A stretch of 64,000 bases of DNA, taken from a virus. Below the pieces are notes generated by a model. The model did not search any database and had not been told where the DNA came from. It was given only the letters and a program-made list of their open reading frames with translations. Each line of letters begins with the position of its first letter. Position 1 is the first letter of the stretch. The translations under genes were made by a program, and so were the position numbers. This document shows, in pieces, positions 8,768 through 42,620 of this stretch. The DNA lies in the IMG/VR virus record IMGVR_UViG_3300027893_000003, positions 124,001 through 188,000 of that record; one strand, 5' to 3'.

Positions 8768-8978
8768 AAGGTGGTCTCAAAGCAGACTTTCTAATAGCTT
8801 CTTTATTTACTATGAGTTGTAAGTAATCTATGCTTGCTATAGACTTCTTACAAGTTGTGCAGTACTTTATAGGAGTACCACGACCTGTCCACTCCATTCT
8901 AGCAAAATGATTTTCTCCACATATTGGACATTTACACTCAACATCTATCTTTTCTATCGGGGGACCTAATTTGTTCAC
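8760..8978 (-). CDS. Zinc-ribbon hypothetical protein, 72 aa
   Basis: CKCPICGENHFARMEW and YCTTCKKSIAS form a classic two-knuckle zinc ribbon. Start taken at a GTG (MNKLGPP) with GGAGG 7 nt upstream. A single-stranded nucleic-acid or protein-adaptor role is typical of such ribbons but unproven here. Confidence 0.5.
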   Translation of the reverse strand: MNKLGPPIEKIDVECKCPICGENHFARMEWTGRGTPIKYCTTCKKSIASIDYLQLIVNKEAIRKSALRPPYE

Positions 8979-9096
8979 TAGAACCTCCACTAAATATGTC
9001 TACTAAACGCTTCAACATTGAGTCTAGGTGCCTGCCGATTATGATTCCTACAATGGTATAGATGATGGGTTCATAGGTAGACAAATTAAACTTCAT
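8938..9096 (-). CDS. Small membrane protein, 52 aa
   Basis: Short frame from ATG 9096 with GGGAAAG upstream. One transmembrane helix (PIIYTIVGIIIGRHL) lies near the N-terminus. It begins 4 nt after the next upstream gene ends and overlaps the zinc-ribbon gene by 41 nt. Confidence 0.5.
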   Translation of the reverse strand: MKFNLSTYEPIIYTIVGIIIGRHLDSMLKRLVDIFSGGSSEQIRSPDRKDRC

Positions 9097-9099
9097 TTT

Positions 9100-9423
9100 T
9101 TACTTTCCCTTCGGTTTCTCCGGAACTTTCGGATGTGATTTGATTGATTTCTGGACTTGTGACGGAGATTTTCCTTTACCTCTCCAATAGGTTGATGCAT
9201 GAACTTCGTCTTTAACAGCTGCACAAAACGCGTTAGGATCGCTAACCTTCCCTTTCATCTTTTCGACACACAGTTTGAAAAATCCAGGAGATTTGGGTCC
9301 GCCCTTAACTCTCTTTGATAGAGTTAGTCCAAATCTTCTAACACTGTCCCTTGTCCATCCTCTCGGGTATGCTTTAAAACCGGCTTCTTGTAGATAAGTT
9401 AAGTATTCATTGAGTAATTTCAT
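9100..9423 (-). CDS. Basic phage protein, 107 aa
   Basis: A Lys/Arg-rich protein with YPRGWTRDSVRRFG, FFKLCVEKMKGK and DPNAFCAAVKDEV. It resembles short phage proteins that end in a DPxAFCAAxKD..GTxYWRG-type pattern. First gene after the leftward promoter motif at 9451-9469. Molecular role unknown. Confidence 0.55.
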   Translation of the reverse strand: MKLLNEYLTYLQEAGFKAYPRGWTRDSVRRFGLTLSKRVKGGPKSPGFFKLCVEKMKGKVSDPNAFCAAVKDEVHASTYWRGKGKSPSQVQKSIKSHPKVPEKPKGK

Positions 9424-9450
9424 AATCTTCTCCTAAACTTATTTTACCAG

Positions 9451-9469
9451 TTTATTTTATATTTGTTCC
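9451..9469 (-). promoter_or_regulatory. Candidate leftward phage promoter (GGAACAAATATAAAATAAA)
   Basis: Read on the minus strand, one of seven GAACAAA-(A/T)-TAAA sites that stand just upstream of leftward transcription units in this window. It lies about 30-45 nt before the gene starting at 9423. Confidence 0.5.
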
Positions 9470-9525
9470 GGAATATAGGAATAATAACCAACAAAGCATT
9501 AAAAATAATTAAAGGAAGTGTTTCT

Positions 9526-9798
9526 CTATGGTTTAGGAACTTGGTCTGCTCCTGGTGGGGGAGTTGTGGGTACTGGAGGTTTATCTTTTCTCGCAGCTCC
9601 AACCCATCTCTCAACTTTGTTTGAACCAATATATGTTCCCCATAGAATTGCTAGGAGTTCAGGGGTCATTGCAGGGTAAGGCTTTTGAAACCACCAAACA
9701 AAGGGGAACATTCCAACAATCATTCCGGTAAGAATAGTAGCAAAGAAAGCTGTCTTCGATGACTGATTACTTACACTCCATAGGAATTTTAGAGCCAT
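9526..9798 (-). CDS. Small membrane protein with Pro-rich tail, 90 aa
   Basis: Start at MALKFLW with GAGGAG 7 nt upstream, overlapping the stop of the sulfotransferase gene (TAATG). One hydrophobic segment (FFATILTGMIVGMFPFVWWF), then a soluble part and a proline-rich C-terminus. Similar in shape to phage holins with short cytoplasmic tails; it sits 0.75 kb from the spanin-like pair. Confidence 0.5.
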   Translation of the reverse strand: MALKFLWSVSNQSSKTAFFATILTGMIVGMFPFVWWFQKPYPAMTPELLAILWGTYIGSNKVERWVGAARKDKPPVPTTPPPGADQVPKP

Positions 9799-10526
9799 TA
9801 TATACTCCTCATAAGTAGTGGCCACCTTTCTTCTTTATTTGAAAAGAATTCGGTTATCCAATCTCTTTGCTCATCTGTTAAATTCACACTATTACCTGTA
9901 TCTAATTTAACATTATGTCTAACATTTCCTGTAAGTATACAACCTTGAGGTAATCCAGTGAACTTGGCTATTTCTATTCCTTGCTTCTTTGGAGTTGAAC
10001 AATAATCTTCATATCGTATAACCCTATATATTTTCGGATCAAGATTTGATACTTGATTATTTAAAAGTGTTAGTTGCTCATTACAGATAATGGCTGTATT
10101 TCTAAGGTTAGTCCCAAAATTTCTTCGGAAAGATGATAATGTAGACATCATAGGATCTCTAGTCATTATAACTATTTTCAAATTGTCAAATAATTCAATC
10201 ATATCCTTTAAGTCTGGCGTATAACGATCTCCCTTTCCAAAAGGAGCAGACCTCTTATATAATAGAAATTGTTTTCTATTATATTTTTTGAGTAACATAT
10301 CTAAAGTTGGAATTATCTGCTTCTTTGCTCCTTTATACTGCTTTATATCACCAAAACGATCCCACATTAGTTTTGTTAACTCGTTAAACTCATTAATTAA
10401 AGGGTCTTTTATTGGTTTGTAATTTCCTCCAAGAGTTAATACATTGCCGGGAGTACTCATAATTCTAAGCATCATAGTTGTGCCTGAACCAGAGCAACCA
10501 ACAATAAAGATAAAATTATAACTCAC
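9798..10526 (-). CDS. Sulfotransferase-like protein 1, 242 aa
   Basis: The N-terminal P-loop-like 5'-phosphosulfate site FIVGCSGSGTTMML and the 3'-phosphate site KIVIMTRDPMMSTLSSFRR mark a PAPS-dependent sulfotransferase. This family moves sulfate from PAPS to a hydroxyl or amine of a sugar, lipid or protein. The acceptor is unknown. Three further sulfotransferase-like genes and an APS kinase lie within 4 kb on the same strand. No signal peptide, so it acts in the cytoplasm. Confidence 0.75.
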   Translation of the reverse strand: MSYNFIFIVGCSGSGTTMMLRIMSTPGNVLTLGGNYKPIKDPLINEFNELTKLMWDRFGDIKQYKGAKKQIIPTLDMLLKKYNRKQFLLYKRSAPFGKGDRYTPDLKDMIELFDNLKIVIMTRDPMMSTLSSFRRNFGTNLRNTAIICNEQLTLLNNQVSNLDPKIYRVIRYEDYCSTPKKQGIEIAKFTGLPQGCILTGNVRHNVKLDTGNSVNLTDEQRDWITEFFSNKEERWPLLMRSI

Positions 10527-10535
10527 TATATTCTC

Positions 10536-11123
10536 CTATAACGCTAATATTACTGCTATTGCCACCGCTACAGTTCCCACAACTCCAAGTGTAACCTTAT
10601 GTTCTATTCTTTGTTGCTTCAATTCATACTCCAATTGTAAGACTCTATTCTCTGCATTTATCCATAAAGTTCTATATCGTTGAACGGTAACATCTTGGAG
10701 TTTGACTAGTTCTAGCATTGAGTTATAAAGTTCTACTTCAACTTGAACTCTTTGTACAAGAAGGTCAGCAATCTCAGTCATCATCTTACCTTGCTCTATT
10801 TTAGCAACTATCTTATTATGCTCTTTCACAAGGTAACCGATTATCTGAGCATCATCGGGAATTTCCCCTTCCCAATCAAAGTCACTAGTATTCCCCTTTC
10901 TCACAAGATAGATTGGAACAGGTTTATCCATCTTGTGAACCTTCTCCAAAATTTCAGCTAATTTGTCTATTCTAAGTTTAAATGGTTTAGTAAATCTTTC
11001 CTCTACTTCAATTGGTTTAAATTCATCAGGAGGTTCGAATTTTTGTGCTCCTGCACAACTAGTTAGGACTCCAACTCCAAGAATTAGCAAGAAGAGTATA
11101 GGATTCTTTAGGATCTTGAACAT
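10536..11123 (-). CDS. Lipoprotein with C-terminal membrane segment, spanin-like, 195 aa
   Basis: Signal peptide with lipobox (LGVGVLTSCAG) at the N-terminus, a long helical middle (residues 90-165) and a C-terminal hydrophobic segment (LGVVGTVAVAIAVILAL). An outer-membrane lipid anchor plus an inner-membrane helix in one chain is the architecture of unimolecular spanins, which fuse the two membranes at lysis. AAGGAGC precedes the ATG. The upstream gene, overlapping by 65 nt, encodes a coiled-coil membrane protein as in i-spanin/o-spanin pairs. Spanin role inferred from architecture and overlap only. Confidence 0.55.
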   Translation of the reverse strand: MFKILKNPILFLLILGVGVLTSCAGAQKFEPPDEFKPIEVEERFTKPFKLRIDKLAEILEKVHKMDKPVPIYLVRKGNTSDFDWEGEIPDDAQIIGYLVKEHNKIVAKIEQGKMMTEIADLLVQRVQVEVELYNSMLELVKLQDVTVQRYRTLWINAENRVLQLEYELKQQRIEHKVTLGVVGTVAVAIAVILAL

Positions 11124-11431: not shown

Positions 11432-12220
11432 TTAATTCTCCCATTCCTCTATTCTGTATCCTAGAAGGTCAAATAACTTTTCATTATGTTCTTTATAAAA
11501 ATCATTAAACTCTCTTTTATCCTTTTTCTTTATAGGTTCATATTTTCTTGACCAAACTTTATATACTTTTTCCTGACTATCCTCGTACATATCATCTGTC
11601 TTTTTATTATACCTCTTAGACGTAGGTATTCTCTCAGTTGGCAATTCAATTAGTTTAGCTCCAATAAAATTATATATCTTTTTCATCTCCTCAGTTAAAT
11701 TAACTTTCATCCTCTCACAAATGTATATATAAATCTGTTCTCTTGGGAAAAATAATAGAACATTATTTGTAAGTAGCTTATGATACATACCCAACTGTAA
11801 ATAGAGTTTTCCCCTAGGTTGACTTTTACAATTATCAAGACTAAATGGCCAACTTAATTTTCTCTGCTGGAGATTCATCTGATAATGTGAATATGCTCGA
11901 TCAATTGGGTTTCTAATACCTATTAATAGCTTAGTGTCTGGAGAATGTTGAGACATAAGTCTCATACACTTTTTATAACCTGCATAATCTGGACTTTTCT
12001 CACCACAAATATCACCCTGAAATCTACTTTTATACCAGTCGACTCCTCTCTTCCAATTATTTAAACCCCAGAATCTCATTTCTGTACCACCACTGACTCC
12101 TGGTCTTATTGGCCCTGCTGGTTTGCACATTGTTACGTCAGGGTGTTTATTTAAATTTAGAAATAGTTGTGTTGTTCCACATTTCATAAAACCTGCTATT
12201 ATAAAGTCTGGAAATTTCAA
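11432..12220 (-). CDS. Sulfotransferase-like protein 2, 262 aa
   Basis: DFIIAGFMKCGTTQLFLNL is a clear 5'-PAPS-binding loop; GEKSPDY and LLIGIRNPIDRAYSHYQ match the following Sulfotransfer family motifs, including the 3'-phosphate-binding Arg and Ser. At 262 aa it has the full length of a single-domain cytosolic sulfotransferase and is the most canonical of the four. It overlaps sulfotransferase 3 by 4 nt. Confidence 0.85.
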   Translation of the reverse strand: MKFPDFIIAGFMKCGTTQLFLNLNKHPDVTMCKPAGPIRPGVSGGTEMRFWGLNNWKRGVDWYKSRFQGDICGEKSPDYAGYKKCMRLMSQHSPDTKLLIGIRNPIDRAYSHYQMNLQQRKLSWPFSLDNCKSQPRGKLYLQLGMYHKLLTNNVLLFFPREQIYIYICERMKVNLTEEMKKIYNFIGAKLIELPTERIPTSKRYNKKTDDMYEDSQEKVYKVWSRKYEPIKKKDKREFNDFYKEHNEKLFDLLGYRIEEWEN

Positions 12221-12912
12221 GATGAATCTCCTAACTCATATTTTGGTCCATCGAATCTATTGAATACATCAATAACTTTATTAAGTCTTGAATCAACCTT
12301 TAGTCCAAAACCATTTCTCTTGTAGTTAAAGGCTCTTCCTGTCCTTACAACTTCGCTATAATTAAAGGGATCTAGATTACAGTGCTTATATATATTTGCA
12401 GTGATCTCTTTAAAATTTAAAACTAAATTCTCGTACTTGATAGTTAAGCATGTCTTCAATTCTGAAATTTCTTGTGTATAATTAGGTATACATTTAAGAT
12501 ACTGATCAAACATTCTTGGTATTTCTTTCTCTATTCTTCGACTCCTATATTTAAACCTTATAATTGAATTCCAAGAATCAAAGGGGTGTCTCACTATTTG
12601 AATTATTCTTGAATCTTTTCCAAATGTTTTATTCCACTGTTTACAATAGTCAACTACAGTAACATTTGATATATGCCTTTTACCCAAAACTCCTTTCTCA
12701 TAAATTAGTTTTTCTCCATAATTAAGTTTGAATTTCGGGTACCTATTATATAAATACTGCTTATTCACAAATCGAAATCCCGGTAAAGATCTACTTCTTA
12801 GAATATGTTCTTCATTAAACATGCCCGCCACTTGGGGATGTTTCTTACAAACTCTGTATGTAAGGGTAGTTCCACTCCTTGGAAAACCAACTACTAATAT
12901 CTTTACTCCCAA
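12217..12912 (-). CDS. Sulfotransferase-like protein 3, 231 aa
   Basis: ILVVGFPRSGTTLTYRVC (5'-PSB loop) and RIIQIVRHPFDSWNSIIRF (3'-phosphate site) are both intact. A TTG start with GGGAG 7 nt upstream is used; no better start is visible. The acceptor-binding C-terminal half differs from paralogs 1 and 2, so the four enzymes may have different acceptors. Confidence 0.8.
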   Translation of the reverse strand: MGVKILVVGFPRSGTTLTYRVCKKHPQVAGMFNEEHILRSRSLPGFRFVNKQYLYNRYPKFKLNYGEKLIYEKGVLGKRHISNVTVVDYCKQWNKTFGKDSRIIQIVRHPFDSWNSIIRFKYRSRRIEKEIPRMFDQYLKCIPNYTQEISELKTCLTIKYENLVLNFKEITANIYKHCNLDPFNYSEVVRTGRAFNYKRNGFGLKVDSRLNKVIDVFNRFDGPKYELGDSS

Positions 12913-12914
12913 TA

Positions 12915-13586
12915 TTATCTCCCTCTTAGGCGCTTATGAAATTTATTAATTTCTCCATATAATTCTCTGGTTCTTTTAATAACTAAATCTTCTATTTCTT
13001 TACTTATTGGTTTTTTAGTAGATGCTCTCCTATGATCTATAGAATTTATTAGTTTTCTAAATTGGCCAACGTCTTGGCGCTTCATATCATCAGTCCAATG
13101 CTCAAACCTGATAATAGGATTTCCTGATTCAAGAAAGTCATACACGATATTATTCCATCTAGTTGTATACCAAATAGCTAATTCTTTTGTATCTATTCCC
13201 CCAAAAGGTTCAGCTTTTTCTGGATGCCTTCGACTATACATTGAACAATAAGCATATACAGGGTTGCGTACAATACACATTGCTTTAACTGAGTTTATTG
13301 TTAGAAACGGACTAAATTTGGAAACTCCGCCACTCAATAAAATTGGCTTTTTTGAGTTATGAATAAATCTTACTAAATTGTCATTAAGAGTGATACTCAT
13401 ATCAAGATCGGTTCCTGTACGATGTTTCCATGCTTTTTGCATGGTCGGTTTTGGCATATGACATATGTCACCATTAGCACCAAGAACCACATCAGGTCGC
13501 ATATACGCATCCATGAATCTACGGATATGGGATGTCGCATGACCACCCCACGGTGCAATTACTACTTTAATATTCTGGTTCTTCAT
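12915..13586 (-). CDS. Sulfotransferase-like protein 4 with altered PAPS loop, 223 aa
   Basis: Start set at MKNQNIK by AAGGA about 8 nt upstream, overlapping the APS kinase end by 20 nt. The N-terminal loop reads VVIAPWGGHATSHIRRF instead of the usual xxxSGTT, while the second site (CIVRNPVYAYCSMYSRR) is conserved. It may be a divergent but active enzyme or one that has lost PAPS binding. Context in the sulfation island supports the family call. Confidence 0.6.
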   Translation of the reverse strand: MKNQNIKVVIAPWGGHATSHIRRFMDAYMRPDVVLGANGDICHMPKPTMQKAWKHRTGTDLDMSITLNDNLVRFIHNSKKPILLSGGVSKFSPFLTINSVKAMCIVRNPVYAYCSMYSRRHPEKAEPFGGIDTKELAIWYTTRWNNIVYDFLESGNPIIRFEHWTDDMKRQDVGQFRKLINSIDHRRASTKKPISKEIEDLVIKRTRELYGEINKFHKRLRGR

Positions 13587-13902
13587 AGTCAGTTCCTTCC
13601 CATAATTCTCCAAAGGGAAGGCAAATTTCAAGACATTCGTTAAGTAATGATTGTGCCTTCCTCCTCCATTCTCTTTTTGGGCTAACACAAGCGACTACAA
13701 CTGTAAACCCCTGTTCCTCTAATAACGTAGCAAATTTTGCTATAAGCATTATATTGTTTTCTCTTCCCTCGTCTGTAAAATCAGAGGGAAAATATTCCCT
13801 TATTTTATCTCCATCTAAAATAATTCCATTTGTTTGTTTTGCAATACGCTTTGCTAAAGTTGTTTTACCAGCCCCAGATCTACCTGTAATCCAATATACC
13901 AT
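13567..13902 (-). CDS. Miniature adenylylsulfate (APS) kinase, 111 aa
   Basis: YWITGRSGAGKTTLAKRIA (Walker A), ILDGDKIREYF and FTVVVACVSPKREWRRKAQS follow CysC in order, and the C-terminus (EGTDYEEPEY) matches the end of CysC (FTGxxxxYExP). It is about 60-80 residues shorter than typical CysC because the KGLYKKARAGE-type lid region is missing. The reaction would be APS + ATP to PAPS, feeding the neighbouring sulfotransferases. The missing lid may change activity; a different small-molecule kinase role cannot be excluded. Confidence 0.7.
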   Translation of the reverse strand: MVYWITGRSGAGKTTLAKRIAKQTNGIILDGDKIREYFPSDFTDEGRENNIMLIAKFATLLEEQGFTVVVACVSPKREWRRKAQSLLNECLEICLPFGELWEGTDYEEPEY

Positions 13903-14463: not shown

Positions 14464-15438
14464 TTACTCCAATAAAAATTGTTTTAATCTAGTTGCTGAT
14501 ATAGCAGCAGTACCAACCTCTGCAACCACCAAACCGGCTGCAGCATTTGCAAGTATTGCTGCCTGCTTTGAGTTTAGTCCAGAGACTAACGATAGAGTAA
14601 AGGTACTAATTACAGTATCACCCGCTCCAGATACATCAAAAACCTTTCTTGCTATTGTAGGTATTTGGATAATTTGATTATCTTCAAAAAGGGTCATTCC
14701 CTTTTCCCCACGTGTTATTAATACTGTCTTACAATTAAGTTTATCGAGTAGTAATCGACCAGCTTCATCTATAGTATCTGTATTTGCCATAAGTTTAGCT
14801 TCATAAGAATTAGGAGTAATTAGTGTGGCCCCTTTATATAATTCTATATTCTGTACCTTAGGATCTACTGCTAAAATAAGATCATTAGGTATAATTGAGC
14901 GAATTCCGTCCATAAGCTCTTGAGTAACAACACCCTTTCCATAATCAGCAATTATAATAGCGTGTAGTATTGGTAATTGGTCAGTAATTGCATCTAGAAT
15001 TTTCTTGGTATATTCTGAGCTAATAGGTTTTGTATCTTCCAGGTCGACTCGAACAACTTGCTGAGAGTGAGCTACTACTCTAGTTTTTACAGTAGTTGGT
15101 CTTCCTTCATCTATTATAATATAGTCGGTAGGGCTGCTTATGCTTATAAGCATTTCTCGTAACTTCCATCCTGTAGAATCACTCCCGATTACTCCACAGA
15201 TTGTAGCATTTCCCCCCAAAGAAATAATGTTATGTACTACGTTTCCGGCGCCTCCGAGCATCATGGATCGCCTTTCAACATTAACTATTGGGACTGGAGC
15301 TTCGGGGGAAACTCTTTTGACATGACCCCATATAAATTCATCTACTATTATATCACCAACAACTAAAATTCGGTTATCTATAAATTTATCAATTCTTTTT
15401 GCCAAAGACTTGTTTGTGAGTTCTCCACTTTTCGCCAT
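14464..15438 (-). CDS. D-glycero-beta-D-manno-heptose-7-phosphate kinase-like PfkB protein
   Basis: A full-length (324 aa) match to the kinase half of HldE (RfaE domain I): ILVVGDIIVDEFIWGHVKRV, SPEAPVPIVNVERRSMMLGG, GGAGNVVHNIISLGGNA, QVVRVDLED and the PfkB signature DVSGAGDTVISTFTLSL with its catalytic Asp. It phosphorylates heptose-7-phosphate at C1. With the adenylyltransferase at 4161-4571 the phage covers two steps towards ADP-heptose; the isomerase and phosphatase steps are not visible in the window and could be supplied by the host. Confidence 0.85.
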   Translation of the reverse strand: MAKSGELTNKSLAKRIDKFIDNRILVVGDIIVDEFIWGHVKRVSPEAPVPIVNVERRSMMLGGAGNVVHNIISLGGNATICGVIGSDSTGWKLREMLISISSPTDYIIIDEGRPTTVKTRVVAHSQQVVRVDLEDTKPISSEYTKKILDAITDQLPILHAIIIADYGKGVVTQELMDGIRSIIPNDLILAVDPKVQNIELYKGATLITPNSYEAKLMANTDTIDEAGRLLLDKLNCKTVLITRGEKGMTLFEDNQIIQIPTIARKVFDVSGAGDTVISTFTLSLVSGLNSKQAAILANAAAGLVVAEVGTAAISATRLKQFLLE

Positions 15439-16665: not shown

Positions 16666-16754
16666 CGAATTGACATGACTCAAAACACCACACAAACCCC
16701 CGGCAGATCAGAGGTAAAGGCAGCGGCAATAGCATCGAGGAGATGCGAATCTTG

Positions 16755-16850
16755 TTAAAAAGGGGTGGGCTCCTCAAACCACATCTTCCCTCGGAGTCGG
16801 CTAGTCACAGTCAGGATTTTCTGGTGCGAACTGTGTCTAGGGCCGCAGAT
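16755..16850 (-). ncRNA. Structured RNA module 1, related to module 2
   Basis: Second copy of the module, about 185 nt from the first. Its hairpin is CACAGT 16806-16811 with ACTGTG 16830-16835. Transcription is inferred to be leftward because the tRNA-like gene upstream and the terminator downstream both read that way. Confidence 0.5.
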
Positions 16851-30785: not shown

Positions 30786-32033
30786 TTAACCTATTATGAT
30801 AGCGTCGAGAGATACGGTATTCACTGGCATCCATACTCTGAGTTTATAAGGCGGGACAGTGATGAGTTCTTCATGCATGGGATAGATTTTGTCAACCCCA
30901 TCAAAAAATGCACTAGTTACCTGTAGACCTCCAAGGGAAGAAATATCAACATCATAATAATAATTCCCAGCGCTTAGGGTCCAATCACCTGGTGCAGTAA
31001 TGTTATCTCTAACAATACTTGCACCAGCAACGAAATACATATTACCAGGGAAAAACCATATACTAATTGTACTTGGACCTGTTGCTGCACTTATTGCTGT
31101 TCCAACTGTCTGGCGAAAAGCAGGCGGTACAACATTTGTGACTGTACCTGCTTCGGTTGTAGATAAATAAAGAGTATCACCAATAGCAACTGTAACTCCA
31201 GTTTCAACTGGTACGTCATCAGCACGACCGGCCATTCTAACTTTACCGCTGCCATCGGCCTCATAACCAACTTGAATAATAACTGCGTCTGCTTGATGGT
31301 CAATAGAATCGGCAATAGCAGGTTGCATAGCACCACCTGCATCAACATAACCTAATTGACCAACAGTCATTCCAATTGTATCAATATTATCTCTAATTGC
31401 ATTAAATGTTTCCCAACGAGCAGACGTGCCCCAATATAATCTGTCAGTCGACCTTACGTAGATAATTCTAGCCTCATGTTCATCCTGATCAAATGCCGGA
31501 ACTGTATCTTGAACACCTGCAAAGAGAGGAGCATAGACTCGTCTATTTGTTGGAGTTGCTGGGTCAAAATCCCACACATCATCAATTTCAAATGCGGATC
31601 CGCTCCATGATACTTCAACTGCTTTTAGAAATAAATATCTATCAGAATTAAATAATGTTGCAGTTTGACTTGGTAGGATAATTTTGATGGTAGCTTCTGG
31701 GGCGGGTCTAGATTTTGTATAAACATAATCAAGGACAACATAGTAATATCCTATTTCGTTCCACCACCCTCCAGATGGATCAACATAAAAATCCTCATCT
31801 TCAAAATCAACTGTTAGGGTAGCAGTCGTTTGAATCAGTACGTCATCCTTAAAACATTGACCCTCTGAGCATTCGACTTCCGTGGTTGATAATTGTGTGA
31901 CTTCAATTGAATGTGTACCAAATAAACAATTGAGTCCGGTAGTTATCATCCGGGTTAGTCTGTTTACAACATTGCTATGATAAGATGCATAAGGGTCAAC
32001 TATTCTCTCTTGACTTGGAGTCGGATTACCCAT
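30786..32033 (-). CDS. Baseplate or fibre-attachment protein, 415 aa
   Basis: First gene after the leftward promoter motif at 32073-32088. The N-terminus (VVNRLTRMITTGLNCLFGTH) is followed by beta-rich sequence with ARIIYVRSTDRLYWGTSARW hairpins typical of virion fibre proteins. Position at the head of the adhesin block suggests it connects fibres to the baseplate; not proven. Confidence 0.55.
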   Translation of the reverse strand: MGNPTPSQERIVDPYASYHSNVVNRLTRMITTGLNCLFGTHSIEVTQLSTTEVECSEGQCFKDDVLIQTTATLTVDFEDEDFYVDPSGGWWNEIGYYYVVLDYVYTKSRPAPEATIKIILPSQTATLFNSDRYLFLKAVEVSWSGSAFEIDDVWDFDPATPTNRRVYAPLFAGVQDTVPAFDQDEHEARIIYVRSTDRLYWGTSARWETFNAIRDNIDTIGMTVGQLGYVDAGGAMQPAIADSIDHQADAVIIQVGYEADGSGKVRMAGRADDVPVETGVTVAIGDTLYLSTTEAGTVTNVVPPAFRQTVGTAISAATGPSTISIWFFPGNMYFVAGASIVRDNITAPGDWTLSAGNYYYDVDISSLGGLQVTSAFFDGVDKIYPMHEELITVPPYKLRVWMPVNTVSLDAIIIG

Positions 32034-32072
32034 CTTACCTAATCTCCCCTCTTAGGATAAAGTCTATTGTGG

Positions 32073-32088
32073 TTTTAAAATTTGTTCT
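32073..32088 (-). promoter_or_regulatory. Candidate leftward promoter of the tail fibre operon
   Basis: Minus-strand AGAACAAATTTTAAAA, matching the GAACAAA-(A/T)-TAAA motif, 40-55 nt upstream of the 415-aa gene. Confidence 0.45.
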
Positions 32089-32139
32089 AATTAATATCTA
32101 TTGTCAGCATAATCTAATTTTTTGTATTTAGTATATGTT

Positions 32140-39654: not shown

Positions 39655-39800
39655 GGTAGGGGGAATGGCAACCGGAATGCTGGATGGTTGTTCTACCACC
39701 ATCCAAGACGGTCGGGAGGACTCTTTTCCAAAGTTGGCGGTCTTTCCTCCTTTCAACTGCCAATACCGTCTTTGGGTTCGATTCCCACCCCCTACCACCC
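39655..39800 (+). ncRNA. tRNA-like structured RNA with pseudoknot-forming insertion
   Basis: The 5' GTAGGGG (39656-39662) and 3' CCCCTAC (39789-39795) form a perfect 7-bp acceptor. Before the 3' arm stands a T-arm with loop TTCGATT and 4 of 5 stem pairs. Between them, instead of standard arms, are a 7-bp hairpin (39682-39688 with 39698-39704) whose loop holds TCT, and an 8-bp stem AAGACGGT/ACCGTCTT (39705-39712 with 39765-39772). That stem encloses crossing helices GGAGGA/TCCTCC and TTGGC/GCCAA. A terminator follows 5 nt later. A 57-codon frame (39630-39803) overlaps and is the alternative explanation. Confidence 0.5.
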
Positions 39801-39805
39801 TTTAG

Positions 39806-39838
39806 AAAAAAAGGTACTCGTTATGAGTACTTTTTTTT
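39806..39838 (+). terminator. Intrinsic terminator after the tRNA-like RNA
   Basis: A7 G GTACTC pairs with GAGTAC T8. It separates this RNA from the repeat array 18 nt further on. Confidence 0.8.
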
Positions 39839-39849
39839 AGTAATTTATT

Positions 39850-41383
39850 CTGCAAAGTGAACCATCGTGAAACAGATTACCTGAGCGAGAGAGTGAACCA
39901 AAGGAGAGAAATAGGAACCCTCCTAACCTCAGTGAACCTAACTTTATCAGTATCTAAACAGAATGAGTGAACCATGCATCCAGAAAAATTCATACCCGCC
40001 GAGTGAACCTGTGGTACAATTAATCCAATCAGTCTAGTGAACCAAGATAAAGAAGTATCTAAGAATCTTAAGTGAACCAAAATTGAGCAGAAATCAAATG
40101 ACGAAAGTGAACCAGTAGTGATCAAAAAACTCAGACGTGGCGAGTGAATCAGAAGTGAGGATAATAACCAGAAAACGGGAATGAACCGGTCTGGGCGAGA
40201 AAACCATTCAAGGAAAGTGTAAAAAACCAGTCGGTGCAGGGCACCTTAGAGTGTACCAATCCGAAATTAGTGTGAACCAAGCGAGGCCAGAAGACCAGGA
40301 TTTTTGAGTGGACCGTTTTGGCGAAGTAACCCATCGTTGGAAAGTGAACCAGATAAAGACACAAAAAATCATCATTGTTAAGTGAACCATAGCATATCAG
40401 GTAACCGATGCAAGGAGTGTACCTACGTTGGCTAGAAAATCCCGTACATGAAAGTGAACCAAAGTCTACAGCTAAACCATTATAGTCCAGTGAACCAATA
40501 AGCCCGGAGAAAACCTGGGAGCTGCAGTGAACCAGTTGAAGGCAGTTATTCATGATGACTGAGTGAACCCAAAAAGTCATGCAAACCCATTTTTCAAAGT
40601 GAACCAACGACGAAAAAAATCTAATATGATAAAGTGGACCATTCCCCTGTAATAATTCACATTCACCAAGTGAACCACCCAGCAACAGAAACCCAGTGCG
40701 CCGGAGTGAACCAATCTAAGGAAAAAAACCAATTTTTGAATAGTGAACCAACAGGGAGCAGAGGAATCCAGCGACACGGAGTGGACCATAAAATGTCAGA
40801 AACCCAAAAATTTGAGTGAACCAAGTGGGGGAGATTAACCTGAAAAAAGAGTGAACCGTCCTCTCGCAGAAACCCAGCGCGTTGGAGTGGACCAAGTTAC
40901 GTAGTAAAAACCCAATTGCCGAGTGAACCCGGAATGGATAAACAACCTAAGACGATAAGTGAACCAGGTGGGGGAGAATATTCCGAAGAAAAAAGTGAAC
41001 CTAGAATTGGGAGAAATCCTGTGGGTGTTAGTAAACCATGTAATTACAGCAACCCATTTCTATAAAGTGGACCTTCAAGCACAAAAAAATCAGAACTCAA
41101 AAGTGAACCGTATTGGCAAGGAAAAACCATTTGTTGGCAGTGAACCATCATTTGATAAAATTCAAACATCCGGAGTGAACCAGAAGTCCGCAGTATCCAA
41201 CGAACATGAGTGAACCTATATCTCTTAAAAAATCTAGAAGAAAAAGTGTACCAAGGAATAAGAAAAATCAATAAATTGTAGTGTACCAAGAGAAGCGTGT
41301 TTCCGATTCCAAAGAATCGAGACGTACCGGCACGTAGAGTGAACCATCGAATTAAAGAATCCCATATATATATAGTGAACCAA
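39850..41383 (+). repeat. TIGR-type array: about 43 units of 36 nt with two short boxes and two spacers
   Basis: The octamer AGTGAACC (variants AGTGGACC, AGTGTACC) recurs about 43 times, almost always at 34-39 nt intervals (commonly 35-37). Examples of the G position: 40851, 40887, 40923, 40959, 40995, 41031, 41067, 41103. Halfway between copies lies a second weaker box ending in AAAxCC or AAATC. Each box is followed by a variable 9-10 nt stretch that differs from unit to unit. This repeat-spacerA-repeat-spacerB design with 36-nt period is that reported for TIGR arrays, whose 36-nt tigRNAs carry two guides. One unit is shortened to 21 nt (40251-40272) and one interval near the end is 58 nt (41281-41339). 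The last box overlaps the ribosome site of the tas-like gene. Confidence 0.85.
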
Positions 41384-41394
41384 GGAGAAGTGTT

Positions 41395-42558
41395 ATGGCT
41401 AAGGAAGTTTTAGAACCTATAAAATCAATCGCAGATGTTTTCAAGGGCAGAGGTTTTAGCATACCTGTGCAACCTGTACCTGAGTTGTGGAGTCCAAAGA
41501 TTGAATTGAGAGGATTAATTAGAGGATATGACGATATTCAGAGGGATAGGATCAGGATGGGAAATAGGATTCTTGGTAATCTATATCGTCGCTTTGGACT
41601 AAAACCGGGAGAAAAGAAAGAAGGTCTTTATGGTCTCCCAAAAGAGTTAATGGGACTTATCTCTAGAGAATACAAGAGAATCACTGACGGTGTTGTGATA
41701 AACATGAAAGAGATTCCTAAGATTATGAAGGATGCACACCCTGGTATAATCTCTGGTGAAATTATGTTTATATTTGTTGACACCTATATATCTCTTGTCA
41801 AACAGGAGTACAAGATCAATAAGCAAATTGAGAAATTTCTTGATGAGTTTCCAATCTGGACAGAATTCCTGAAAGGACTTGAAGGAGTTGGTCCTACAAT
41901 GGGCGGCGTTCTTGTGAGCGAACTTGATCCTCATAGGGCAAACCATGTCACCGCATTTTGGAGTTATGCTGGTCTTGACGTGGTATGGACTCTAGATGAG
42001 ATCGAAGGTGAAGAGGTTGTCAGAGGAGAAGGTAGAAGTAAGAAATCTCACCACTTAGTCGATAGGGAATATACAGATAAGTCTGGTAAAACCAAAACAA
42101 AGAAGAGTATAACATATTCCCCATACCTAAAAACAAAACTCCATGTCCTGGCAACCAGTTTCCTTCGTAAGCAAGATAATATTTATTCACCTATTTTCTA
42201 TGATTACAGAACTAGAATGCAGGGAAGAAGGGAGTTCTTCATAAGAGCTCTAAGGCAAAAACAAATCCTCTATAAAAAAGACCCCCATGATTCTGAGGGA
42301 ACCCTGACCATTAACTCTGAGAAATATGAGTTATGTAAGAAATGGTTGGCAAAACAGAAAAAACAACCAACTCTAAAAGAAGCAAAGAAGTTTGTCTTGA
42401 GTAATATCATAAGCGATAACCATATAAAGAATATGAGTATTCGCTATATGCTCAAAATATTTCTTCTTGACTTCTGGAGGAAGTGGAGGGAGTTAGAAGG
42501 ACTACCGATATCCGCTCCATATGAAGAAGAAAAATTGGGTATCGTACATTCTAGGTGA
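41395..42558 (+). CDS. Tas-like protein: Nop/IS110-type domain, no visible nuclease, 387 aa
   Basis: Residues 150-200 (FLKGLEGVGPTMGGVLVSEL then DPHRANHVTAFWSYAGLDVV) match the helix-hairpin domain shared by IS110-family transposases (Transposase_20) and Nop-like RNA-binding proteins. The C-terminus (PYLKTKLHVLATSFLRKQDN, IRYMLKIFLLDFWRKWRELE) continues the same family. There is no DEDD/RuvC N-terminus and no HNH Cys pairs, so it resembles a nuclease-less Tas protein. The N-terminal 100 residues are helical. The 36-nt array abuts the start codon (AGGAGAAGTGTTATG). Likely partner of the tigRNAs; effector activity unknown. Confidence 0.8.
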   Translation: MAKEVLEPIKSIADVFKGRGFSIPVQPVPELWSPKIELRGLIRGYDDIQRDRIRMGNRILGNLYRRFGLKPGEKKEGLYGLPKELMGLISREYKRITDGVVINMKEIPKIMKDAHPGIISGEIMFIFVDTYISLVKQEYKINKQIEKFLDEFPIWTEFLKGLEGVGPTMGGVLVSELDPHRANHVTAFWSYAGLDVVWTLDEIEGEEVVRGEGRSKKSHHLVDREYTDKSGKTKTKKSITYSPYLKTKLHVLATSFLRKQDNIYSPIFYDYRTRMQGRREFFIRALRQKQILYKKDPHDSEGTLTINSEKYELCKKWLAKQKKQPTLKEAKKFVLSNIISDNHIKNMSIRYMLKIFLLDFWRKWRELEGLPISAPYEEEKLGIVHSR

Positions 42559-42580: not shown

Positions 42581-42620
42581 AAAGACCCCAAGTTATTAAT
42601 ATACTTGAGGTCTTTTTTTT
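42581..42620 (+). terminator. Intrinsic terminator after the tas-like gene
   Basis: AAAGACC pairs with GGTCTTT, with inner AAGT/ACTT, then eight T. Confidence 0.85.

What the first reader, a model, noticed from the sequence alone, without database searches (positions are those of the whole stretch)
39850..42558. Phage-encoded TIGR-Tas system: 36-nt dual-spacer array with a nuclease-less Nop/IS110-like protein
Seen: about 43 copies of AGTGAACC at 36-nt mean spacing over 1.5 kb, a second half-unit box (xAAAxCC), and two non-repeating 9-10 nt stretches per unit. The array ends exactly at the ribosome site of a 387-aa gene with an IS110/Nop-type domain. Known: TIGR-Tas systems (reported in 2025) use 36-nt tigRNAs with two guides bound by Nop-domain Tas proteins, also found in viruses. 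Inferred: this is such a system, of the type without HNH or RuvC. The array is unusually long, and the effector has no cleavage domain, so it may silence targets, recruit another nuclease or process phage RNA.
Basis: partly seen in the sequence, partly recalled or inferred. Interest (0 to 1): 0.95.

Follow-up and report, generated by a model that had tools for sequence, protein, structure and literature searches.

The report
Phage TIGR-TasA guide array, nuclease-less
A large bacterial virus carries two long libraries of about 65 tiny paired guide RNAs plus one guide-binding protein without DNA scissors; it is a genuine member of the recently described TIGR-Tas systems, and comparing related viruses shows that some guides are kept almost unchanged while others are replaced, so what they aim at becomes a testable question, although their targets are still unknown.

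Summary
Window 39856-41381 has 29 exact and 42 near-exact AGTGAACC boxes (chance mean 2.2 in the whole window), alternating with a second AG-(n)-CC box, with two unique ~9-10 nt stretches per ~36-nt unit. It runs into the ribosome site of a 387-aa gene. The protein is a Tas: a 35-sequence profile hits TasR (8e-50) and TasH (1e-46) far above IS621 (5e-12), and the AlphaFold model's (pLDDT 81) 11 best PDB matches are all TasH or TasR. No HNH or RuvC was found, so it is TasA. A DNA-box search of IMG/VR, blind to protein, found 33 more contigs with a Tas homolog beside such an array.

New here: the 224-kb phage has a second, tas-less array (27 units) 132 kb away, syntenic in three other contigs. 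34 guide families are shared between related phages: mostly collinear, some 18/18 identical while a flanking gene is 73% identical; whole units turn over, and some guides sit in the other array in relatives.

Targets were not found: none in the phage itself or E. coli rRNA. Exact matches in a Desulfobacteraceae cas7e gene and in a phage terminase are leads within chance. Silencing by DNA binding is inferred.

The parts
39806..39838 (+). terminator-like hairpin with T run just before the array; upstream boundary of the unit
   Evidence: consensus scan, 15 pairs; not evidence of function
39856..41381 (+). TIGR array: about 41 units; edge box AG-TGAA-CC(A), spacer A 9-11 nt, loop box AG-n-CC(A), spacer B 9-11 nt, ~36 nt per unit
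   Evidence: 29 exact and 42 near-exact boxes; identical in L018 and L019
40216..40271 (+). irregular unit inside the array (AGTGTAAAAAACCAGTCGGTGCAGGGCACCTTAGAGTGTACCAATCCGAAATTAG), nearly identical in L020 while neighbouring units differ
   Evidence: alignment with L020; fold not better than shuffles
41280..41337 (+). irregular hairpin-like unit inside the array; sequence differs in L020 but the predicted hairpin is similar
   Evidence: z -1.45 here, about 0 in L020: weak
41382..41388 (+). ribosome-binding site AAGGAGA of the tas gene, directly after the last edge box
   Evidence: read from sequence
41395..42558 (+). tasA gene, 387 aa: Nop-type Tas protein without HNH or RuvC domain
   Evidence: PF02371 9.5e-6; TasR 9mty 3e-13, TasH 1.4e-5; profile 8e-50 and 1e-46; AlphaFold model pLDDT 81.4 with 11 best PDB matches all TasH/TasR
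42581..42620 (+). terminator-like hairpin and T run after tasA (AAAGACCCCAAGT...ACTTGAGGTCTTTTTTTT)
   Evidence: read from sequence; not listed by the scan, whose loop limit is 8

Best explanation
This is a phage-encoded TIGR-TasA system. The array is transcribed (inferred) and cut into ~36-nt tigRNAs (inferred from characterised relatives). [quoted passage not shown] Lacking a nuclease, it most likely acts by staying bound and bending the DNA, blocking transcription or replication of foreign or host DNA in the infected cell; the phage's own genome holds no match. One TasA probably serves two unlinked arrays, about 65 regular guides in all (38 + 27). The guide set is inherited, partly held constant by selection, exchanged between the two arrays, and renewed by replacement of whole units.
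For: Array anatomy matches the published dual-repeat TIGR array. The protein clusters with TasR/TasH by profile and fold and above IS110 and Nop5. 33 contigs found only by array boxes carry a Tas homolog on the same strand, nearly all 2-540 nt away. One tas gene in the record but two arrays with the same boxes, both also in G002. Shared, collinear guides with 18/18 identity while a flanking gene is 73-74% identical; guides in swapped arrays. No self-target above shuffles.
Against: No RNA or binding data. No target confirmed, so dual-strand DNA targeting and silencing are unproven for this protein. The Foldseek superpositions have high rmsd (8-10 A) and TM about 0.4-0.6, so domain arrangement is not established. 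That TasA uses the distant array is inferred from shared repeats only. The selection argument rests on few phages and on guides found by their similarity.
Confidence: 0.72

Rival explanations
1. Anti-immunity variant: the TIGR-TasA guides silence host defence genes, in particular CRISPR cas7 genes, early in infection.
For: The most conserved guide (identical in four arrays) matches 18/18, gap 0, in the KRTWRTS motif of a type I-E cas7 gene of a Desulfobacteraceae genome, with 1 mismatch in a second species. A guide of L020 fits a type I-C cas7 gene with 1 mismatch in the 9+9 core. In 186 Cas ORFs two guides had synonymous hits at <=1 mismatch versus 0.05 in shuffles. No exact IMG/VR target for the first guide.
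Against: 24 exact hits equal the chance expectation, and one cas hit among them is not strong; part of the Cas set was chosen with that guide. The L020 pattern hit seven unrelated places and no second cas7c. No hit in 30 further cas7c loci. No excess in 1.1 Mb of the genome carrying the exact cas7e site. Host unknown.
Confidence: 0.1
2. Inter-phage competition: guides bind genes of other phages, such as the terminase, and block their replication or expression.
For: One guide family (FDE[V/I]LQ when read as codons) has an exact gap-0 match in a terminase-like ORF, FDEVLQSWDCSFKDLDSSDYVVGQVWG (gene named from its sequence, not by a profile). Inter-element competition is one function proposed in PMC12045711.
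Against: It is one of 28 hits; no excess of guide matches in related jumbo phages or other viral contigs beyond preselected ones. Three other guides had no coherent viral target.
Confidence: 0.3
3. An RNA-targeting, snoRNA-like guide system: the guides pair with RNA (rRNA or mRNA) rather than DNA.
For: Nop fold shared with Nop5 of box C/D RNPs.
Against: No rRNA matches above shuffles, E. coli rRNA only; closest relatives bind dsDNA and had no activity on RNA (PMC12045711); Nop5 match weak (E 0.24).
Confidence: 0.06
4. Not a guide system: an ordinary tandem repeat or leader of an IS110-type transposase gene.
For: The array directly precedes the gene; the only Pfam match is named for IS110 transposases.
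Against: Variable stretches are unique yet conserved between phages. A second array with the same boxes stands without tas. 33 other contigs show the same pairing. No RuvC domain, and profile and fold are nearer Tas than IS621.
Confidence: 0.03

Closest known systems
TIGR-TasA, dual-repeat type (Faure et al. 2025, PMC12045711)
   Same: Alternating edge and loop repeats, ~9-nt spacers, ~36-nt unit, matching end boxes in both repeats, adjacent Nop-only protein, phage-borne
   Different: About 41 units (paper: most often 5-15); a second, unlinked array without tas; boxes AG...CC instead of UG...CCA of TasR; two irregular units in the array; 387 aa protein against about 270-330 aa in most relatives here
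TasR (9mty) and TasH (21kl, 9w04 and others)
   Same: Nop region matched by profile and fold
   Different: They carry RuvC or HNH nuclease domains; none found here
IS110 / IS621 bridge-RNA recombinases
   Same: Related RNA-binding region (PF02371; profile 5e-12; Foldseek E 0.016)
   Different: No RuvC (DEDD) domain here; guides in long arrays, no transposon ends examined
Archaeal box C/D sRNP protein Nop5
   Same: Distant fold match (3id5, 3pla; E 0.24)
   Different: No Rfam snoRNA hit; methylation partners not searched for

Membership tests
TIGR-Tas | Array of two alternating 8-12-nt repeats with ~9-nt spacers, ~36-nt unit | tested here: met
TIGR-Tas | Edge and loop repeats share their start and end boxes | tested here: met
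   AG...CC in both; the parser favours these letters, so read the raw units as well
TIGR-Tas | Adjacent Nop-domain protein that groups with Tas rather than IS110 or Nop5 | tested here: met
   no tree was built
TIGR-Tas | Array begins and ends with truncated edge repeats and is followed by a terminator | tested here: inconclusive
   The array lies upstream of tas and its last full box abuts the ribosome site; a terminator-like hairpin follows tas
TIGR-Tas | Processing into 36-nt tigRNAs bound by Tas | not testable with these tools
   no RNA data
TIGR-Tas | Dual-strand DNA targeting by spacers A and B | not testable with these tools
   target searches gave only chance-level hits
TasA subtype | No HNH or RuvC nuclease domain | tested here: met
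   Pfam; 9mty match begins at residue 121, after its N-terminal part
IS110 transposase | N-terminal RuvC-like (DEDD) domain | tested here: not met
   No Pfam match besides PF02371
Box C/D sRNP | K-turn RNA with L7Ae and fibrillarin partners | not tested
   Only Rfam was run, without a snoRNA hit
CRISPR array | Identical 25-36-nt repeats with similar-sized spacers | tested here: not met
   8-9-nt repeats, two kinds; cas genes were not searched for in the phage

The most novel reading that the evidence does not exclude
A phage uses a nuclease-less TIGR-TasA with dozens of guides as a programmable silencer of host immunity genes, cas7 among them: a guide-RNA counter-defence whose guide set is inherited, selected and shuffled between two unlinked arrays.
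Probability: 0.1. Interest if true: 0.93.

Novelty: new variant of a known kind. Interest (0 to 1): 0.6.

Why it matters
The targets and origin of TIGR spacers, and what TasA does without a nuclease, are stated open questions in PMC12045711. A set of related phages whose guides can be aligned one to one shows which guides are held constant and which are replaced. That gives a short list of guides worth testing, and it suggests that arrays are inherited and can exchange units between two loci although no adaptation gene is known for them.

Tried and rejected
(1) Self-targeting: four geometries, no excess over shuffled A/B pairs. (2) rRNA targeting: none, E. coli rRNA only. (3) Synonymous tracking: many orthologous guide pairs look like synonymous codon changes when read as A + rc(B). 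A permutation test gave z of -1.4 to -5, but all geometries gave a signal, differences cluster at certain positions, and mod-3 cross-tallies against the marginals were at best borderline, so I do not claim it. (4) cas7e, cas7c, P-type ATPase, terminase: each a striking single hit among a chance-level number. (5) Excess of synonymous near-matches in 1.1 Mb of a Desulfobacteraceae genome plus cas regions: none beyond the cas7e hits; peptide-level matches to Cas-region proteins equal to shuffles. (6) Related jumbo phages and other viral contigs as targets: no excess. (7) Scans for further conserved guides in IMG/VR: 2, 28 and 14 hits with no shared gene that I trust. (8) First structure job with a two-sequence alignment failed (pLDDT 33); repeated with 35 sequences. 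(9) Named phages: no Tas relative by tblastn in INPHARED.

Full report
WHAT IS THERE. Between a terminator-like hairpin (39806-39838) and another after the gene (42581-42620) lies one likely transcription unit: an array (39856-41381) and a 387-aa gene (41395-42558). AGTGAACC occurs 29 times on the + strand in the array; shuffles of the whole window give 2.2 on average and never more than 6. With one mismatch allowed there are 42 boxes, usually 34-39 nt apart, modal 36. Between boxes sits a second box, AG-nnnn-CC. The two remaining stretches of 9-11 nt are unique: 1 of 2850 pairs of spacers is at least 8/9 alike. The identical array occurs in two further IMG/VR contigs.

THE PROTEIN. Alone it matches PF02371 (9.5e-6), TasR 9mty (3e-13) and TasH (1.4e-5). 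I collected relatives without using protein similarity: a DNA pattern of three GTGAACC boxes was scanned through IMG/VR, and ORFs in those contigs were then compared with the protein. Thirty-three of the contigs carry a Tas homolog (17-42% identical) on the same strand as the array, nearly all 2-540 nt from it. A profile of all 35 sequences hits TasR at 8e-50 and TasH at 1e-46, IS621 only at 5e-12. The AlphaFold model from that alignment has pLDDT 81.4, pTM 0.77; its best 11 PDB matches are all TasH or TasR chains, followed by IS621 and Nop5. Pfam shows no HNH or RuvC domain, and the match to 9mty covers only its part from residue 121 on. This is a TasA.

WHAT IS UNUSUAL. The window lies in a 223,954-bp virus record with T4-like head proteins. 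The record has one tas gene found by protein search but a second array with the same boxes, 27 units, at about 31150-32132, with no tas beside it. Both arrays are also in a 277-kb contig of the same phage type. The second array is syntenic in L063 and L116 of related phages, and its guides are also in L071. A more distant relative (L039; major capsid protein 67% identical) has an array next to the capsid gene, again with no tas on the contig fragment. Most other phages with related capsid proteins show neither this array nor tas, though many are fragments. That one TasA serves both arrays is inferred from the shared repeats.

HOW THE GUIDES EVOLVE. Across nine arrays (264 units) 34 guide families are shared. 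Orthologous guides are mostly in the same order: 8 between the window array and L020, 7 between the second array and L063, 15 between L063 and L116. Among guides shared with L063/L071/L116, three are 18/18 identical and three 17/18, while the gene after the second array is only 73-74% identical; neutral drift at that divergence would rarely leave 18/18 (0.735^18 = 0.004 per guide, my calculation). Most other units have no counterpart, so units are replaced whole. Some guides changed array: GAAGTCCGC/ACGAACATG and ACAGGGAGC/GCGACACGG are in the tas-side array here but in the second array of the relatives, and two guides of the second array are in the tas-side array of L020. So arrays are inherited, partly under purifying selection, renewed, and exchange units. 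This rests on a handful of phages and on families found by similarity, which favours conserved ones.

WHAT THEY AIM AT: NOT SOLVED. The phage's own genome has no matches beyond shuffled guides; E. coli rRNA has none. The most conserved guide has no exact target in IMG/VR and 24 exact hits in 85,000 prokaryote genomes; about 22 are expected by chance from the collection size (my calculation). One of the 24 is gap-free in the conserved KRTWRTS motif of a type I-E cas7 gene of a Desulfobacteraceae genome, with a one-mismatch hit in a second species. A guide of L020 fits a type I-C cas7 with one mismatch in its 9+9 core, but the same pattern hits seven unrelated places and no second cas7c. In a set of 186 Cas ORFs two guides had synonymous hits at up to one mismatch against 0.05 in shuffles, but one of the two had been used to choose part of the set. 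Another guide family fits a terminase-like motif, one of 28 viral hits. General excess tests in bacterial and viral DNA were negative apart from preselected hits. I treat all of these as leads. A tempting pattern, that differences between orthologous guides look synonymous, did not survive controls. The host is unknown; Desulfobacterota were searched only because of the cas7e hit.

MECHANISM. From the characterised members (PMC12045711) the expected path is: long precursor, 36-nt tigRNAs, Tas dimer, spacer A on one strand and spacer B on the other, strong DNA bend. Without a nuclease the simplest outcome is a roadblock on the target. What is shown here is the anatomy, the family membership and the evolution of the guides; processing, DNA binding and silencing are inferred. 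My estimate is about 0.95 that this is a TIGR-TasA locus and about 0.6 that it acts by binding and silencing DNA that is not its own.

COMPARISON AND NOVELTY. It is a member of TIGR-Tas by the features that could be tested. It differs from the published description in array length (paper: most often 5-15 units), in having a second, unlinked array without tas, in the AG...CC boxes and in two irregular units, one hairpin-like. In the papers held here I found no report on guide conservation between related phages; most subscription journals are not in that library.

Noticed in passing
window 39655-39800: A tRNA-like RNA directly upstream of the array: acceptor-like stem GGTAGGGGG/CCCCCTACC, T-arm-like GGGTTCGATTCCC and a large structured insert; folds much better than shuffles (z -4.3) but is not called by ARAGORN and only weakly resembles tRNA-Sec in Rfam (22 bits).
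   Followed up: partly
L010 (G000:C1:20001-40000) 8841-10878 and 16716-16793: tRNA genes (Trp, Cys, His, Pro) surround the second array; tRNA-His ends about 270 nt before it.
   Followed up: no
L010 9209-9745; L116 463-1050; L063 1896-2483: A stand-alone protein that looks like an HNH endonuclease by eye (CQYCG...IDHxIPKSRxG) is conserved upstream of the second array; it could be coincidence, or a nuclease partner for TasA.
   Followed up: no
L039 11576-13442: A related phage (capsid protein 67% identical) has two sub-arrays with the same box on either side of a 195-aa ORF next to its capsid gene, and no tas on the fragment.
   Followed up: partly
L137, L097, L083, L160 and about 30 other loci: TIGR arrays beside Tas homologs are common in IMG/VR; L137 has about 42 boxes.
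   Followed up: partly
L245, L261, L373, L365: Some Desulfobacteria Cas7 proteins (types I-E and I-C) seem to carry large insertions, seen as split Pfam matches in long ORFs.
   Followed up: no
window 14464-15438 and 11432-13688: The phage encodes a protein resembling the sugar kinase RfaE and sulfotransferase-like proteins (named by eye, not searched).
   Followed up: no
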